26,193 nt of DNA from a virus: IMG/VR virus record IMGVR_UViG_3300010233_000238, positions 1 to 26,193 of that record; one strand, 5' to 3'. How positions within the stretch are numbered: position 1 is the first letter of the stretch; each line of letters starts with the position of its first letter. A model generated the notes under the pieces. The model saw nothing but the letters and a program-made list of their open reading frames with translations. It ran no database searches and was not told the DNA's origin. The translations under genes were made by a program, and so were the position numbers. Positions 4,653-25,201 of the stretch are shown one piece after another.

Positions 4653-4684
4653 TCCCCAGCATATTAATCTGATAGGAGTTTTAA

Positions 4685-5236
4685 ATGATTTTTGATCTGA
4701 ATTTTATAGAAGAGTGTTTTAACTTTAATTTTTCTACTGGTGTACTATCTTGGAAAGATTCAAGACCTTTAAATCATTTTGCAACGTGGAGGGGCTGGGT
4801 TAATTGGCACAACAAGAATCCCGGAAAGATCGCTGGCCATGTCGATACAAATAACTACAAAGCAGTCAAGTTAACTACAGAAGGAAAAGAATTTAATTAT
4901 AAACAACACCGATTAATTTATGCGCTCTATCATGAGGATACTGACCCTCCAGTAATTGATCACTTTGACGGAAATACAACCAATAACTCAATATCTAATT
5001 TACGACCAGCAGACAAAGAAATTAATGCCAAGAATAGGATTAAATCTGTAAGAAATAAATCTGGAATAACAGGTATTTGTCGTATTAAAGATCGACCTAA
5101 CTTGTGGCGAGCATCAATTAAATACAATGGAGAAGTTTTAACTAAAACAACTGGAGATTTCTTTGAAGCTTGTTGTTTTAGAAAATCCCTTGAAATTAAA
5201 GCTGGTTATACTAATCGGCATGGCAAGGATATTTAA
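4685..5236 (+). CDS. Free-standing HNH homing endonuclease
   Basis: A 183-residue protein of the HNH_3/AP2-linked phage endonuclease type. The core reads KQHRLIYALYH, then IDHFDGNTTNNSISNLR, with the paired His and Asn residues that bind a divalent metal and cut DNA. The C-terminal third (SGITGICRIKDRPNLWRASI and onward) is the AP2-like DNA-binding repeat common in these enzymes. The SD AGGAG is seven bases from the ATG. It is inserted on the opposite strand between the gp25-like and spike genes. Its last 4 bases overlap the spike gene's 3' end. It is a clear paralogue of the HNH protein at 24620-25201, sharing RP-x-x-HF-x-x-WRG, NNSISNL and a final HGK-acid-I. Confidence 0.92.
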   Translation: MIFDLNFIEECFNFNFSTGVLSWKDSRPLNHFATWRGWVNWHNKNPGKIAGHVDTNNYKAVKLTTEGKEFNYKQHRLIYALYHEDTDPPVIDHFDGNTTNNSISNLRPADKEINAKNRIKSVRNKSGITGICRIKDRPNLWRASIKYNGEVLTKTTGDFFEACCFRKSLEIKAGYTNRHGKDI

Positions 5237-6918: not shown

Positions 6919-7254
6919 TTAGTCCTCTGTGGAATAGCGATAATAGAAATTGTAATACTGATTAATATCTTCAGGGTATGCTTTGTAAGGTTCGGAGATG
7001 ATGTTAGCTTTCTCCTCTAGCCAGAAATAACCTGTCAATAGGTTCAGTGCATAGTCAGAAATCACTGGGTAACTTGGCACCAGAGCTACACTCTCAACTA
7101 ACGGAAGATTCTCTGCTGTGTATAGAGACAATAGGTACAACTTCATTCTGGAATTATACTGGAAGTCTAGTACATAAGACTGCCCTTGCAGATTTACTGC
7201 ATAGTTGTATTTATCATCAGAGTACAGTGGGAGTTTAACGTAGTGATTTATCAT
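6919..7254 (-). CDS. Small baseplate protein (hub plug-like)
   Basis: A 111-residue protein that begins MINHYVKLPLYSDDKYNY and has a small beta-rich core (GQSYVLDFQYNSRMKLYLL), followed by a Tyr-rich C-terminus. Proteins with this plan are common between the Dit-like and hub genes in contractile phages and have been called baseplate plug-type proteins; I make this link from layout and general resemblance. The ATG overlaps the end of the upstream gene by four bases (7251-7254), and the hub gene starts two bases after its stop. Confidence 0.65.
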   Translation of the reverse strand: MINHYVKLPLYSDDKYNYAVNLQGQSYVLDFQYNSRMKLYLLSLYTAENLPLVESVALVPSYPVISDYALNLLTGYFWLEEKANIISEPYKAYPEDINQYYNFYYRYSTED

Positions 7255-8033
7255 TGGTTATCATTAGCTCCCGCTTGTCTCGATGGATCAACATCCACAG
7301 CTTTAGGGGGTTCACCTGAATCTGGCGTACTAGGTGCTTTACCTTTTTCAGACTTAGGTGCGGCTTTCTTCTTGAGTTTATCAGTGATATCTTTCGGGAT
7401 GGTTGCTTTCTTCAGAAAAGCAAAAGTAACTTGTTCCAAAGTCATATCAAAATAAAGTGCATAACCAGTATTTGCATCTTCTTTAAAAGTGATACTAGTG
7501 ATTACAAGGCTGTTTGTAATCTTCTTTAGAAGAGTTCCATCATATTCATACAATTCAACAAGCTGGATATTAGGATCAAACTGACCTGTTATATCATTGA
7601 AGATAACACCACTCATAAGAGATTCTAAAGCATCTTGAATCTGTGACAGCAAGTCTTCTCTTGCACTATCAACTACAACTTCAGGAGTGCTATCAGACAA
7701 GAATTGACCAATACTATCTGGGATGAATTTCTTCAAAACACTTTGATCTGTACTGTTCACAGATACTGGAGTAGGGGCCTCAAAACTGTTATAAGGAGAA
7801 TTCCCATCCAAGTCTTGAATCAAATAAGTGTTGGTTGAAATATCGGCACCAGAGATTACAGCAGACAGACTAATCTCATCATTAGATTTGATGTAGTGGT
7901 CTGTGATACTAGAACCAAGAGAAATAGGGTGTTTAGTGACTTCGCCTTTCTTTCTCTTGGTAGTGTTAGTGACAGCATCCATAAAAATCAGACCACCACT
8001 GTAAGCATCTCCCCACTTAATTGCAAATGACAT
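7251..8033 (-). CDS. Dit-like / tail-tube-proximal baseplate protein
   Basis: A 260-residue protein starting at the ATG at 8033, which has AGGAG ten bases upstream. The segment around KHPISLGSSITDHYIKSN, then ISLSAVISG, fits the N-terminal pattern of Dit-like phage tail proteins (tehPve-x-g-x-x-itDH). These link tail tube to baseplate hub. The C-terminal ~40 residues are Lys-, Pro- and Ala-rich and probably disordered. The upstream endonuclease gene runs 17 bases into this gene, and its coding sequence contains this gene's ribosome-binding site. Confidence 0.75.
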   Translation of the reverse strand: MSFAIKWGDAYSGGLIFMDAVTNTTKRKKGEVTKHPISLGSSITDHYIKSNDEISLSAVISGADISTNTYLIQDLDGNSPYNSFEAPTPVSVNSTDQSVLKKFIPDSIGQFLSDSTPEVVVDSAREDLLSQIQDALESLMSGVIFNDITGQFDPNIQLVELYEYDGTLLKKITNSLVITSITFKEDANTGYALYFDMTLEQVTFAFLKKATIPKDITDKLKKKAAPKSEKGKAPSTPDSGEPPKAVDVDPSRQAGANDNQ

Positions 8034-9036
8034 AGCTAAACTCCTCTGAAATTTCTCCGCCAAAGCTTTTGTATATGTCAATAATATCTTGTAATTTATT
8101 TACATAAGTAGTTTCAGTATAACCATCTGGCATTTCTTGCTTGTTTATAACACTTGTTGGAAGCCTTTCAAGACAAACCTTTTCAGCCTTTCTGCAAGAA
8201 ACCTTATCTGGAAAATTCCAATAAGAATGATTTTTTATATCAAAAATACAGTTCCTATGTTTTCTTTTATCAGCAGTGTTGGCAATACCAAATTTTATAG
8301 CGATAGGAAGCCCACTATCTTCTAATATTTTTATATAACCTTGAGTTGGGCTGTGTCTAGAACAATCACAACCCAAACTTCCGTTAATAATATTTGAAGC
8401 AAGTGCTTCTGCTGTTACTTCACACTTAGTACAGAAGTAACTCCAATACTCTTTTCTACCCCTTGTAGATATTCTGCCTGATCTTTTGAAATCTATACAA
8501 TAATAATGAGACTTCAGACCAATAAACATATTTATGAAATACTCGTCCGGGAGTATGTTGTGATTAGTCAAAATCTCACTCCTAGTTCTGTTTGAACAAC
8601 AAGGGCAGGATTGGCCCATGAAAAAATTATTGGCCGCCATTTTTGTCCAAACTCCATGTTCGGGGCACTCCAAGATAAGTTTGGTCGTGGCTTTATTATA
8701 AGGCTCAGAGAATCCTAAAAATCTATACCCTCTTTTAATCGCCTCCCTGTCCACCCTTATCATAAGCTGCGCTTCTGTCCAAACAGGTTTCTTTGAACAC
8801 CCACAAGGTATCTGTCCTGCCGATATAGCACTCTTAGTGCAAGAAAATACAGCATTTCCAAAAAGTTCAGGATCTTGTGCACAAATTTTACAGTGTGACA
8901 AATATAGTTTCTTACCCTTACCTCTATGGTCATACTGTTTACCACTCCAACCAAACACTTCTAGCTGATTTTCAGGGCCATAAACATAGCCTACATAATC
9001 GTCTGTATGCAACTCCGCTAAATTCTCTAATTTCAT
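8017..9036 (-). CDS. Zinc-ribbon-rich GIY-YIG-like putative homing endonuclease
   Basis: A 339-residue protein. The first ~230 residues carry three groups of Cys pairs: C49/C52/C66/C78-C80; C124/C144/C146-C147; and C202/C205/C223-C225. These look like repeated zinc-binding DNA-recognition modules, CapR-homology-like as far as I can tell. They are followed by QGYIKILEDSGLPIAIKFGI (about residues 232-251) with Arg258 and Glu285 or Glu290 (KAEKVCLERL). This corresponds to the GIY, YIG, Arg and Glu landmarks of a divergent GIY-YIG nuclease. The gene lies between the tape measure and Dit-like genes, where an endonuclease is not part of tail assembly. Start at 9036 has AAGG upstream. A degenerate or regulatory protein is the alternative. 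Confidence 0.75.
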   Translation of the reverse strand: MKLENLAELHTDDYVGYVYGPENQLEVFGWSGKQYDHRGKGKKLYLSHCKICAQDPELFGNAVFSCTKSAISAGQIPCGCSKKPVWTEAQLMIRVDREAIKRGYRFLGFSEPYNKATTKLILECPEHGVWTKMAANNFFMGQSCPCCSNRTRSEILTNHNILPDEYFINMFIGLKSHYYCIDFKRSGRISTRGRKEYWSYFCTKCEVTAEALASNIINGSLGCDCSRHSPTQGYIKILEDSGLPIAIKFGIANTADKRKHRNCIFDIKNHSYWNFPDKVSCRKAEKVCLERLPTSVINKQEMPDGYTETTYVNKLQDIIDIYKSFGGEISEEFSYVICN

Positions 9037-13525: not shown

Positions 13526-14419
13526 TTATATTGGAACTTCAAGTTCCTTGATTGTATTGTTTGGACGTAAACCATGAACACTTTCATAGCAGTCATCATA
13601 TGCAGCTAGGGCATCTTCTAGATTTCTATATGTCCTATCAAAAATCTTTTCTTTCTGATGTCTAAAAACAGCACGATAGTTACCATTTTCTCTTTTGTTT
13701 ACACCAAAATGTATACCTTGAGGCTTAAGTCTAATCTTACTACCGATTGTTCCTAAGTCTTCTTCGAAAAGATTCTTATTGAGTATCATCAGCAAGAAAT
13801 TTTTATCTTTGTTTAATATAACAGAGGCATCAATTAAGCTATTAAACCACAACCCAAGTACGTATACGGACTGGTGAGACTTAGAATTTATAGCGGGGTG
13901 GCAAACTTCACCAAGAGTTCCGTCAGACCTCCATTTATAAAAACTTTTCTGGTTCATCTGAAGAGCTTTTAGAGCCACTCTTTTTGTTGGGAACCAAAAT
14001 CCAGTTATGTAATAAGGATTAAGATCCCTTTTGGAGAGTCTTTCAGCCCCCAGATTCTTACATACATTATTCTTGTAATACTCAAAAAGAGCTTCAGAAA
14101 TTCTTAATCTAGATTCTTCTGAATGTACAGTCCCATTTTTATTAGGATGACCATCCATTAAGTTGTAGCCGTTGTTTATAGAATCATAAACTTTAATGGC
14201 CTTACTTTCTAAATCAATAATGTAATCTTCAGTTCCTTCACAAAGAATAGTCATGATAAAATTATCTTTACCGTACTTATTAATTGCTTTGGATAGTTTG
14301 GAGCAAGAAGAGCTTTTTGAGAAGTGCTCCTTCAGCCTCTGTTTAGGGCGTGCGGTTATTCCAAAATAAACTTTTTCATTTACAAGGTTAGTAATTTTAT
14401 ACAGATAAAACGATTTCAT
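13526..14419 (-). CDS. GIY-YIG homing endonuclease
   Basis: A 297-residue protein starting at the ATG at 14419, which has AGGAG eight bases upstream. The N-terminal ~90 residues are a GIY-YIG nuclease: FYLYKITN, then VYFGIT about ten residues on, an Arg/His-containing RPKQRLKEHF, SKLSKAINKYGKDNF, and the catalytic Glu71 in LESKAIKVYDSINNGYNL. A NUMOD3-like motif follows (VHSEESRLRISEAL), then DNA-binding segments, with an AP2-like end (GVNKRENGNYRAVFRHQ). This is the layout of SegB/I-TevI-type enzymes. It is placed between the sheath and first tube genes on the same strand as both, and its stop is 15 bases before the tube gene. Confidence 0.93.
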   Translation of the reverse strand: MKSFYLYKITNLVNEKVYFGITARPKQRLKEHFSKSSSCSKLSKAINKYGKDNFIMTILCEGTEDYIIDLESKAIKVYDSINNGYNLMDGHPNKNGTVHSEESRLRISEALFEYYKNNVCKNLGAERLSKRDLNPYYITGFWFPTKRVALKALQMNQKSFYKWRSDGTLGEVCHPAINSKSHQSVYVLGLWFNSLIDASVILNKDKNFLLMILNKNLFEEDLGTIGSKIRLKPQGIHFGVNKRENGNYRAVFRHQKEKIFDRTYRNLEDALAAYDDCYESVHGLRPNNTIKELEVPI

Positions 14420-14489
14420 CCCCAAGCTCCTAATAGTGAATTGACAACTGTACCATAGAAAGAATGAGAATGAAAGCTTTAATTAAAGT

Positions 14490-17622: not shown

Positions 17623-18096
17623 CTATTCCTTTATGTAACCATAATATTCTAGTTCGGCTTCCTGTCTTACTTTGATAGCTTCTTCTAAAGAATCATAACG
17701 GCCAAGTTTAATTAGCTTTTTATTCTTAGAGATATAAACTTCCCATTCACTTCTCTCTTTATTCCAACTTACACCAGTCTTACCTGATGTATTATGGGAT
17801 TTAAGAGTTTGGTTAAAGTTTTGCTCAGAGTAAGTTGTCCACCTACAATTGTCTAAAGAATAGTCCCCATTAACATCAATTCGATCTAATGTGGTTCCTT
17901 CAGGACGTTCACCCATATCTTCGAAGAAGTTTAATACTCCGTTGCTCGGGTCAAGCCAACGTTCACAAATCTTAATTCCTCTTCCACCACTATGCTCAAA
18001 AGTCTTATGGTTTTCATCAGTGACTCGTTGAATCATTGCTCTGTAAGAGGCATAAGTTTTTGTTTTGTATTTACCATGTTTCTCGTTGTGGTGCAT
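17623..18096 (-). CDS. HNH homing endonuclease (phage HNH plus AP2-like type)
   Basis: A 157-residue protein with the familiar phage HNH signature: TYASYRAMIQRV, HSGGRGIKICERW, DMGERPEGTTLDRID, then NGDYSLDNCRW, with the His, Asp and Asn of the beta-beta-alpha metal fold. The C-terminal third (SGKTGVSWNKERSEWEVYIS and so on) is an AP2-like DNA-binding unit. It is inserted between the small head gene and the adaptor gene. Its final codons carry the SD of the adaptor gene, whose ATG starts two bases after this stop. A 10-bp hairpin covers its own start codon and part of its SD, which suggests translation is held back on read-through mRNA. Confidence 0.93.
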   Translation of the reverse strand: MHHNEKHGKYKTKTYASYRAMIQRVTDENHKTFEHSGGRGIKICERWLDPSNGVLNFFEDMGERPEGTTLDRIDVNGDYSLDNCRWTTYSEQNFNQTLKSHNTSGKTGVSWNKERSEWEVYISKNKKLIKLGRYDSLEEAIKVRQEAELEYYGYIKE

Positions 18097-22935: not shown

Positions 22936-24623
22936 TTAAGCTCCTGCATTAAGGAAGGGGTTAGATTGAGTTAGGTTTGCGGATTGAAGGCCAGATAAGA
23001 AGTTGGGGATGATTTGTTTTTGGGCTAAAGTTATGAAGCTGTCCGCCACGGCATCCACTTGGTCATCCTTCCGGGCGCGGCTGCCATCAAAAGCCTCACA
23101 TTCTGCGATAAATACGTCATTCCACTCGCCATGAACGTACCTTACCAGACCAGCTTCGGATGCTGATGCGAATGGCATAAATCTCAAAACTTTTGATTTA
23201 TTTGTTGCTCTCATCCGTGCATAAAGACCCTCACTGAGGAATTCTTTAATCATCATTTGTCCCGCTGCTTTCCCAGCCTGCCCGGGCTCTTGTGGAATTA
23301 TGATTTGCGTACCTTCAGGATCTTCTTTGGCAACTTCAATCATGCGTTGTATGACTTCGCCAAATCTTGCTCGAAACCTAACAACGTCCATAATAATATA
23401 TAAACCAGACTTTGTTTTCCCCAGAAGAACACCCGCAGTCCAGTCAGGGTTAGGAAGTGCTTCTGATGGCAATGAGCCAGCAATATCCCATGCTCGGCAA
23501 TATTGCACGATATCCAAATCAAATGGATTGACAGGTTCACCCATCCAGTCTGCCTTCCAAAATCCGCTGGAATCCTCGCGGATGTCCCAATTCCCAAAAA
23601 GGTCGCGTTCTTTTTTTACACGTTTAAGACCTTGAAGGTTTGCAAGATATCCGGGGTTGGCTTTAATTAGCGGCGGGTTGTCATAGATCGTGGCAGAAAT
23701 AAACTGCAAAGATAGGGGAAGAACGTCTTGACCATAAGTCTCAAGAAGTTCTTCTCTACTATCTCCCCAAATCATTTCGTTGTTTTGACGAATAAACCAA
23801 CGAACTTTACCATCTCGTTCTGGGTTAGGACGGCCAGCGTTCTCTTCCCCTTTAGGGATAATCCACCAATCAATCCAACGTCTTAAAAATGAGTCCGGCG
23901 AGGGGTTACAAGTTAGAAATAAGTTAGGTTTCATCTTCGCTTTAGTACGAAGACGAGAAAGAACAACTAGTGTATGGTCCTCAGATATCTGAGTGGCCTC
24001 ATCTAGCATAGCCCCGGAAATTTGTAACCCACGATATTTTTCAGCATCATCGTCTGTATCAAGGTGAGACATAGAAATCTCAGCGCCTGATTCGAACGTG
24101 AACTTCATTTCCTTAACATTAACTTTTACTTTTGGATCATAAGCTCTGTAAAGCTGGCGGGCCTCATCGAATAGGCCACCGCTTTTTGTAAGAGTATTAG
24201 AATTTTTCCGGATTATGAAACCGCGATATTGAGGGTCATGTACCCAGCGGAGATGGCGAAGTAAGCCACAATATGACTTACCTCCGCCCATAGCCTTTCT
24301 GTTATAAAGCTCGCTAAGCTTTTCTTAAGTTTCCCTAAGTGTCGGACCAACTCTTAATTCTAAGAATTCTCTCTGTTTCGGAATCGCTTGATTCCTACTC
24401 TACTCACTTCCACATTACTGTGTGTTTTCGATGGCCTCTACGCACTGTCTTTAAACATTGGCACGGGATTGGCATAGACCTAAGTCCTTAGCTTTCCCCG
24501 TTTAAGAGAGTTTTAAATGGAGGCGCTAAGTTCACCACCATATACAATTATGTCACTCTCGGCCGACAAGAACCAACTTTGCTTCAAACTTGCCGGTGAG
24601 AATGAATACTCAAAATCTGTCAT
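22936..24623 (-). CDS. terL: Terminase large subunit, split by a group I intron (two exons)
   Basis: The packaging motor ATPase and nuclease, about 482 residues after splicing. Exon 1 is 24623-24534 (30 codons, MTDFEYSFSPASL through IIVYGG). Exon 2 is 24294-22936, beginning AMGGGKSYCGLL. Joined, they give the usual YGGAMGGGKS Walker A. Exon 2 also has Walker B (ISGAMLDEAT), motif III (LFLTCNPSP), and nuclease acidic residues in YCRAWDIAG, YIIMDVV and RKDDQVDAVADSF. Counting from the Met in exon 2, these are D269, D302 and D410/D413. An ATG in exon 2 at 24291 could mislead gene callers into a start at the Walker A. The exon 1 ATG overlaps the upstream HNH stop (ATGA). Confidence 0.95.
24295..24533 (-). 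ncRNA. Group I intron, ORF-less, in the terminase gene (td-like)
   Basis: 239 nt between exon 1 ending ATGGTGGT and exon 2 starting GCTATGGGC; the last intron base is G. Visible structure (intron numbering): P1, exon AUGGUGGU with GCCUCCAU at 10-17, giving the required U.G pair at the splice site; P3, CUCUCU 24-29 with AGAGAG 160-165; P4, ACGGG 33-37 with CCCGU 67-71; P8, AAUUC 166-170 with GAAUU 174-178; P9, CUUAGG-GAAA-CUUAAG 195-210; a further 6-bp stem, AAAGCU/AGCUUU, at 212-228. The UAAACGGGGAA and CAAUCCCGUGC core words and the CGAAAC before P3' match the T4 td intron. P7 is only tentatively placed. Confidence 0.93.
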
Positions 24624-25201
24624 CTTGAAATTTCTTTCCCGTGATTTTCAGAATAACCGTACTCTACTTCCCATGCTTTTCGAGCATTAGCAGCATCTTC
24701 CAACTCTTTAAAGATACCTAGATAATGTCTGACACGCTTTCCGTCAATGACTTCTTGACCTTCGGCTTGCCATTTACCTGTTCTTTTGTGGAAGGATACA
24801 CCTACAACGCCGGAAGAGTTGTTTGTATATTTAGCACGATTTCTGTGGTTTAATTTATCAACACTAAGCTGTAAATTAGATATTGAATTATTTTGAGTAT
24901 TCAAATCAATATGGTCAATATCCTCAGAAGGCCACTCACCATTTACATATAGCCAAGCAAGTCTATGAGCCTTATACAACTTTCCACACAGCCCAATTAC
25001 AACGTAAGGGGATGGATTCCTTTTTGTTGCTGGACTCAAATAGCCAGCTTCAAGTGTAGGACTTATATTACTGAAGAAGCCATTTTTACCTCTCCAATCT
25101 TTGAAGTGGTAATCTGGTCTATCTAACTTCCAAATAAACTTTCCAGTTTCTGGATTGTAGTCTAGAGCTTCTTTTAGATATTCTTGCGTAACTTCATTCA
25201 T
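24620..25201 (-). CDS. HNH homing endonuclease next to the intron-bearing terminase gene
   Basis: A 193-residue protein of the same subfamily as the HNH gene at 4685-5236. It has FIWKLDRPDYHFKDWRG, then KAHRLAWLYVNGEWP, IDHIDLNTQNNSISNLQ, and an AP2-like end (SGVVGVSFHKRTGKWQAEG), finishing HGKEISR. The stop TGA overlaps the terminase ATG (ATGA). The intron begins only 90 bases beyond, and the HNH gene itself is outside the intron. This adjacency suggests the enzyme cuts intronless terminase genes, so that intron and endonuclease gene move together (collaborative homing); that is inference. AAGGAA lies ten bases upstream of the ATG. Confidence 0.92.
   Translation of the reverse strand: MNEVTQEYLKEALDYNPETGKFIWKLDRPDYHFKDWRGKNGFFSNISPTLEAGYLSPATKRNPSPYVVIGLCGKLYKAHRLAWLYVNGEWPSEDIDHIDLNTQNNSISNLQLSVDKLNHRNRAKYTNNSSGVVGVSFHKRTGKWQAEGQEVIDGKRVRHYLGIFKELEDAANARKAWEVEYGYSENHGKEISR

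What the first reader, a model, noticed from the sequence alone, without database searches (positions are those of the whole stretch)
24295..24533. Cryptic ORF-less group I intron splits the terminase gene right before the Walker A loop
The terminase frame seen by simple ORF calling starts at MGGGKS, inside the ATP-binding loop. A 30-codon first exon (24534-24623) ending IIVYGG lies 239 nt upstream. Joining the two gives YGGAMGGGKS in phase 0. The intervening RNA shows a P1 with the U.G splice-site pair, P3, P4, P8, a GAAA-capped P9 and core words like those of T4 td. Insertion at the most conserved codons of an essential gene is typical for homing introns. Standard annotation would give a terminase lacking its N-terminus and no intron.
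Basis: partly seen in the sequence, partly recalled or inferred. Interest (0 to 1): 0.88.

Follow-up and report, generated by a model that had tools for sequence, protein, structure and literature searches.

The report
Self-splicing intron in phage terminase gene
A phage's DNA-packaging motor gene is interrupted, at the codons of its ATP-binding loop, by a small RNA that almost certainly splices itself out, next to a free-standing DNA-cutting gene that probably helps it spread; the same layout is already proven in the cholera phage ICP1, so this is a new member rather than a new kind.

Summary
The finding holds at the stated coordinates. Window 24533-24295 (minus, 239 nt, no long ORF) is a group I intron between terminase codons 30 and 31 (YGG|AMGGGKS). 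Evidence: RF00028 match (39.4 bits, E 1.2e-8, below the 50-bit cut-off); a 97%-identical terminase reading straight through the junction (L001); the same intron family at the same terminase site in 15 other contigs; and strong covariation over 15 sequences (98% of cells paired, 21 pairs with two-sided changes, 0/500 shuffles as good), including P7 and the intron-exon helix P10.

Beyond the finding: an HNH endonuclease gene (24620-25201) ends on the terminase start codon. In most intron-bearing relatives this slot holds an endonuclease, often of another family. HNH gene and intron look co-transferred between the window phage and L002. Best reading: a collaborative-homing pair.

Precedent: Vibrio phage ICP1 has the same layout, its terL splicing shown by RNA-seq and RT-PCR (PMC10448857); its intron lies 3 nt away. 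So: new member of a known kind. Splicing in this phage and HNH cleavage at the P-loop are inferred, not shown.

The parts
24534..24623 (-). terminase exon 1 (30 codons, ends ...IIVYGG)
   Evidence: conserved and fused to exon 2 in intron-free L001
24295..24533 (-). ORF-less group I intron, 239 nt
   Evidence: RF00028 24543-24323; family alignment and covariation
22936..24294 (-). terminase exon 2 (AMGGGKS... to stop)
   Evidence: Terminase_6N and Terminase_6C; phrog_979 terminase large subunit
24517..24541 (-). P1: exon 1 24541-24534 with guide 24524-24517; U24534.G24524 at the 5' splice site
24525..24528 (-). P10 intron strand UAGC, pairs with exon 2 GCUA at 24294-24291
   Evidence: two of four pairs change on both sides across relatives
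24505..24510 (-). P3 5' strand (3' strand 24374-24369)
24463..24501 (-). P4-P5 region (P4 24501-24496 with 24468-24463)
   Evidence: P4 is invariant, so not tested by covariation
24432..24436 (-). P7 5' strand GGCCA (3' strand UGGUC 24349-24345), guanosine-binding helix
   Evidence: all 15 paired; one two-sided change, to GACUA/UAGUC in L113
24380..24422 (-). P7.1 and P7.2 stems between P7 and P3
   Evidence: 7 of 9 pairs change on both sides
24306..24368 (-). P8, P9 and P9.1
   Evidence: 9 of 16 pairs change on both sides
24620..25201 (-). free-standing HNH endonuclease ORF, 193 aa; its TGA overlaps the terminase ATG (ATGA)
   Evidence: HNH_3 E 4e-15 and AP2; phrog_99; dN/dS 0.05-0.09

Best explanation
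24533-24295 is an ORF-less self-splicing group I intron in the terminase large subunit gene, inserted after the second glycine codon of the Walker A loop. The transcript should splice by the usual guanosine-started two-step reaction, with P1 and its U.G pair marking the 5' site and P10 plus the terminal G marking the 3' site, to give a 482-residue terminase. The neighbouring free-standing HNH gene most likely drives spread by collaborative homing: it would cut intron-free P-loop alleles of a co-infecting phage, and repair from the intron-bearing genome would copy HNH gene, exon 1 and intron together. Shown here: identity and boundaries of the intron, intron-free sister alleles, a recurrent endonuclease slot, a co-transfer signature. 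Inferred: splicing in this phage (about 0.95), HNH cleavage at the P-loop and active homing (about 0.6).
For: RF00028 E 1.2e-8, none in intron-free L001; 97%-identical uninterrupted terminase in L001; same intron family at the same terminase site in 15 other contigs; covariation including P7, P1 and P10; GGTGGT before the splice site in 18/18 site-1 introns against 5/37 intron-free sequences; HNH gene under purifying selection; between window and L002, intron 2/239 differences and HNH 12% of third positions against 30% in the rest of exon 2 and 38% in the portal gene; endonuclease-family ORF in the same slot in 18/24 intron-bearing loci against 8 of about 43 intron-free ones; the same layout with proven splicing in ICP1.
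Against: Score below Rfam's cut-off; no RNA data for this phage; no cleavage data. Association of HNH and intron is not strict: L026 has a 62%-identical HNH beside an intron-free site, L023-L025 have the same HNH with a different intron body, L003, L012, L013, L018 and L105 have an intron but no adjacent endonuclease. The association count is by hand and not corrected for relatedness.
Confidence: 0.88

Rival explanations
1. The intron is real but the HNH gene has nothing to do with it: it is an independent free-standing homing gene using the terminase start as a safe site, with a target elsewhere.
For: Endonuclease ORFs occur in the slot of intron-free terminases too (L001, L026, L043, L044, L047, L053, L108); other endonuclease genes are scattered in the window, one ending beside another gene's start.
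Against: Synonymous divergence shows the HNH gene and intron sharing a more recent history than the flanking genes; endonucleases are commoner beside intron-bearing terminases; ICP1 shows the same pairing.
Confidence: 0.3
2. The HNH protein is a packaging component of the HK97 gp74 kind that works with the terminase, not a homing enzyme.
For: HNH proteins beside terminases can act in packaging; PMC10448857 discusses HK97 in this light and PMC12724721 describes a conserved packaging HNH in Skunavirus.
Against: The slot is filled by different endonuclease families or empty among phages with near-identical terminases (L001, L002, L003); the domain set HNH_3+AP2 is that of homing enzymes (the typing is general knowledge).
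Confidence: 0.07
3. There is no intron: exon 2 alone, from Met 24291, is the terminase, and exon 1 is a small unrelated ORF.
For: ORF callers give a 451-aa terminase from MGGGKS; a purine stretch AGAAAGG lies upstream of that ATG, though only 2 nt away.
Against: Exon 1 protein sequence is conserved and fused to exon 2 in L001 and other intron-free relatives; RNA covariation spans both splice junctions; the start lies inside the Walker A loop.
Confidence: 0.02

Closest known systems
Vibrio phage ICP1 terL intron with adjacent T5orf172 endonuclease gp131 (NC_015157; PMC10448857)
   Same: ORF-less group I intron in the terL P-loop behind a short first exon; free-standing endonuclease gene overlapping the first exon's start by 4 nt; similar RF00028 score (42.1 bits); splicing proven by RNA-seq and RT-PCR
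   Different: Insertion 3 nt downstream (YGGA|AGGGKS) with its own guide sequence; endonuclease is T5orf172, not HNH_3/AP2
Rheinheimera phage Barba19A terL intron (MK719730, not annotated)
   Same: Recognisable intron sequence similarity (73% over 152 nt), in the terL P-loop, RF00028 48.9 bits
   Different: Site 6 nt downstream (FGGGA|GGGKT); no endonuclease ORF found directly upstream
Jug phage terL introns (PMC12363816)
   Same: Group I introns splitting terL, splicing seen in metatranscriptomes
   Different: Different phage clade; insertion points not compared here
Collaborative homing in cyanophage psbA and T7-like phages (reviewed in PMC3984707)
   Same: ORF-less intron plus free-standing endonuclease beside it
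   Different: There the endonuclease was shown to cut the intron insertion site; here that is untested
T4 td intron
   Same: Core organisation with P7.1/P7.2 between P7 and P3 (comparison from general knowledge)
   Different: td carries the I-TevI gene inside the intron; this one has no long ORF

Membership tests
Group I intron | Match to the family covariance model | tested here: met
   RF00028, full model length, E 1.2e-8; bit score 39.4 is below the curated 50, as is the proven ICP1 intron at 42.1
Group I intron | Conserved core P3, P4, P7, P8 with the P3/P7 pseudoknot | tested here: met
   All present; P8 and P7 have two-sided changes, P3 only one-sided, P4 invariant
Group I intron | P1 with U.G at the 5' splice site, terminal G, P10 with exon 2 | tested here: met
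   U.G in 13 of 15 rows as aligned; L010/L015 also have it once the three-base loop gap is placed correctly; last base G in all; P10 co-varies
Group I intron | Absent from closely related alleles, leaving an intact frame | tested here: met
   L001, 97% identical, uninterrupted
Group I intron | Self-splicing activity | not testable with these tools
   needs RT-PCR or in-vitro splicing
Collaborative-homing pair (free-standing endonuclease plus ORF-less intron) | Endonuclease gene directly beside an intron without its own ORF | tested here: met
   24620-25201 overlaps the terminase start; intron has no long ORF
Collaborative-homing pair (free-standing endonuclease plus ORF-less intron) | Endonuclease gene and intron move together | tested here: inconclusive
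   Shared low divergence between window and L002 supports it; L023-L026 show the two can part
Collaborative-homing pair (free-standing endonuclease plus ORF-less intron) | Endonuclease cuts the intron insertion site of intron-free alleles | not testable with these tools
   needs a cleavage assay
HK97 gp74-type packaging HNH protein | Conserved partner gene of the terminase in the lineage | tested here: not met
   Absent or replaced by other endonuclease families beside near-identical terminases L001 and L003

The most novel reading that the evidence does not exclude
The terminase P-loop is a shared landing site: group I introns with clearly different bodies sit there in three registers (0, +3, +6 nt) and are spread by an exchangeable set of free-standing endonucleases (several HNH families and T5orf172) that replace one another in a single slot abutting the terminase start, so that endonuclease turnover, not one-to-one co-evolution, keeps the introns mobile.
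Probability: 0.4. Interest if true: 0.6.

Novelty: new member of a known kind. Interest (0 to 1): 0.45.

Why it matters
It is a cryptic intron that standard ORF calling and Rfam thresholds miss, so such terminases are annotated without their N-terminus and half of Walker A. The wider set around it (one insertion region, exchangeable endonucleases, intron-free sister alleles 97% identical) makes testable a question that PMC10448857 leaves open: whether pairs of an ORF-less intron and a free-standing endonuclease arise by convergence on one target or by turnover of the endonuclease.

Tried and rejected
Single-sequence folding energy is not distinctive (z -1.48). Two RNAalifold stems (columns 103-105/129-131 and 199-205/215-221 of A3) were rejected because they occupy the P7 strands; P7 and P8 were redefined by comparison with L113 and L111 and then counted. 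Rfam's own alignment appears to put the P7 5' strand on an earlier AAAGAC. A shuffle test of P1 alone says nothing for the window type (shuffles do as well in 0.5-0.7 of cases). Four of five genome contigs pattern hits (L115-L118) are chance; L114 is a terminase intron in a contig binned as Bacteroidota. HNH relatives L027-L032 have no terminase of this kind nearby. Silent changes at the splice site in endonuclease-bearing intron-free alleles were considered as cleavage resistance, but intron-free alleles vary there anyway.

Full report
OBSERVATION. On the minus strand exon 1 (24623-24534) encodes MTDFEYSFSPASLKQSWFLSAESDIIVYGG. A 239-nt segment (24533-24295) with stops in all three frames follows, and exon 2 (24294-22936) opens AMGGGKSYCG. 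Joined, they give a 482-residue terminase with Terminase_6N over 28-281 and Terminase_6C over 298-447. The joined protein aligns from residue 10 to 477, at about 45% identity, with continuous terminases of KPP10-like Pseudomonas phages. The phage is distant from isolates: its capsid-region protein is at most 40% identical to any held phage record.

IDENTITY OF THE INSERT. In a 521-nt slice Rfam gives RF00028 over 24543-24323, 39.4 bits, E 1.2e-8, full model length. The curated cut-off is 50 bits, and whole-window scans at the gathering score or at E<=1 return no intron. The equal-sized slice of intron-free L001 gives nothing. ICP1's experimentally proven terL intron scores 42.1 bits in the same kind of search, so a sub-threshold score is no argument against this type.

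INTRON-FREE ALLELE. L001 has a terminase 97% identical to the window's that reads ...SDIIVYGGAMGGGKS... without interruption. L002 and L003 have the intron at the same site.

FAMILY AND COVARIATION. A 26-nt pattern inside the intron found 13 viral contigs, the contigs of L002 and L003 among them; L012 and L021 agree over the whole stretch printed around the intron. All 13 interrupt a terminase at the same point, the terminases being 41-98% identical to the window's. A second pattern added L113 and L114 in terminases, and L111/L112, where a similar intron interrupts what looks by motif like a family A DNA polymerase gene; that gene was not tested. On a 15-sequence alignment the structure P1, P3, P4, P5, P7, P7.1, P7.2, P8, P9, P9.1, P10 has 98.0% of cells paired and 21 pairs with two-sided changes (shuffle mean 7.8). 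None of 500 shuffles reaches any of the five measures, and sliding the partners by 1-3 columns drops pairing to 33-48%. P10 joins the intron to exon 2 and changes with it (GCU with AGC in window and L002, GCA with UGC in most others). It is broken in L003, whose exon 1 and P1 loop come from another lineage while the rest of its intron is nearly identical to the window's. P1 changes with the exon in L010/L015. P7.1 and P7.2 between P7 and P3 suggest subgroup IA, the T4 td type; this classing is from general knowledge and was not tested.

EXON CONSTRAINT. The six bases before the 5' splice site are GGTGGT in 18 of 18 site-1 introns but in 5 of 37 distinct intron-free sequences, where these glycine codons vary silently. 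This fits the pairing need of P1, or an endonuclease target, or both.

THE NEIGHBOUR. The ORF at 24620-25201 (193 aa) is an HNH_3+AP2 protein (phrog_99) whose TGA overlaps the terminase ATG as ATGA. Its dN/dS against relatives is 0.05-0.09, so it is kept as a protein. The same slot holds an endonuclease-family ORF in 18 of 24 intron-bearing loci and in 8 of about 43 intron-free loci (Fisher p about 1e-5). That tally was made by hand from those outputs, it is not corrected for relatedness, and in L113 and L114 the ORF was recognised by its open frame and C-terminus only. The families differ: phrog_99 (window, L002, L023-L025), phrog_374 (L009-L011, L015), phrog_2081 (L014, L019, L058, L063), phrog_953 (L020), phrog_655 (L046), phrog_681/T5orf172 (L049, L001, ICP1) (L002, L010, L015, L019, L023-L025, L063 by sequence likeness to scanned ones).

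CO-TRANSFER. Between window and L002 the intron differs at 2 of 239 sites and the HNH gene at 12% of third codon positions. The rest of exon 2 differs at 30% of third positions, the portal gene at 38% and the gene upstream of the HNH at 26% (HNH against exon 2, p 1e-6). RNA constraint could explain the intron, but not the third positions of the HNH gene. Co-conversion of HNH gene, exon 1 and intron would leave this pattern. L023-L025 carry the HNH at 85-86% identity and nearly the same P1, but a different intron body scoring 71.5 bits. L026 carries a 62%-identical HNH beside an empty site. So the pair is not obligate.

OTHER SITES. Group I introns hit the same P-loop in other registers: +3 nt in ICP1 (YGGA|AGGGKS) and +6 nt in Barba19A (FGGGA|GGGKT) and in L046, L049, L058, L063 (FGGAA|GSGKS). 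Second introns lie in the nuclease motif KDD|QVDA of L014 (with an ORF inside), L019, L058 and L063, and near Walker B in L113 (those of L014 and L019 were placed by P1/P10 and frame only, not scanned with Rfam).

KNOWN WORK. PMC10448857 reports RNA-seq and RT-PCR proof of terL splicing in ICP1, with a T5orf172 endonuclease beside the N-terminal exon, and offers collaborative homing or endonuclease turnover as explanations. In the ICP1 record the endonuclease gp131 overlaps the first exon by 4 nt. PMC12363816 reports terL introns in Jug phages with metatranscriptome support. PMC3984707 reviews collaborative homing and names terminases among intron targets.

VERDICT. The intron is real with high confidence; self-splicing is strongly expected but not shown. 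The mobility model is likely (about 0.6) and untested. New member of a known kind.

Noticed in passing
window 8017-9036 (-), 13526-14425 (-), 17623-18096 (-), 4685-5236 (+): Four more endonuclease-type ORFs: CapR/phrog_681, GIY-YIG, phrog_374 HNH with AP2, and HNH_3. 8017-9036 overlaps the start of the next gene (7251-8081), like the one beside the terminase. The whole-window Rfam scan showed no intron there, but it also missed the proven-by-family one, so introns are not excluded.
   Followed up: partly
L014, L019, L058, L063 (3' part of terL); L113 4492-4723: Second group I introns in the same terminase genes, in the nuclease motif KDD|QVDA and near Walker B; the one in L014 is 766 nt and contains an ORF.
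   Followed up: partly
L023, L024, L025 about 4660-4900: Same HNH gene and P1 as the window but a different intron body at the same site, as if the intron core had been exchanged.
   Followed up: partly
L003 about 4790-5120: Intron body and exon 2 like the window, exon 1 and upstream genes from another lineage, P10 broken: a likely recombination junction near the intron's 5' end (a chimeric assembly is not excluded).
   Followed up: partly
L005 (MK719730 about 52990-53270): Rheinheimera phage Barba19A terL intron is not annotated; GenBank's gp103 starts after the intron and gp102 holds the first exon.
   Followed up: yes
L109 about 3570; L052 977-1987: Possible intein at the terminase P-loop (FISGN|SGKS) and a LAGLIDADG_3-bearing ORF just upstream of an intron-free terminase.
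   Followed up: no
L111, L112: A similar intron with another guide sequence in what looks by motif like a family A DNA polymerase gene.
   Followed up: no
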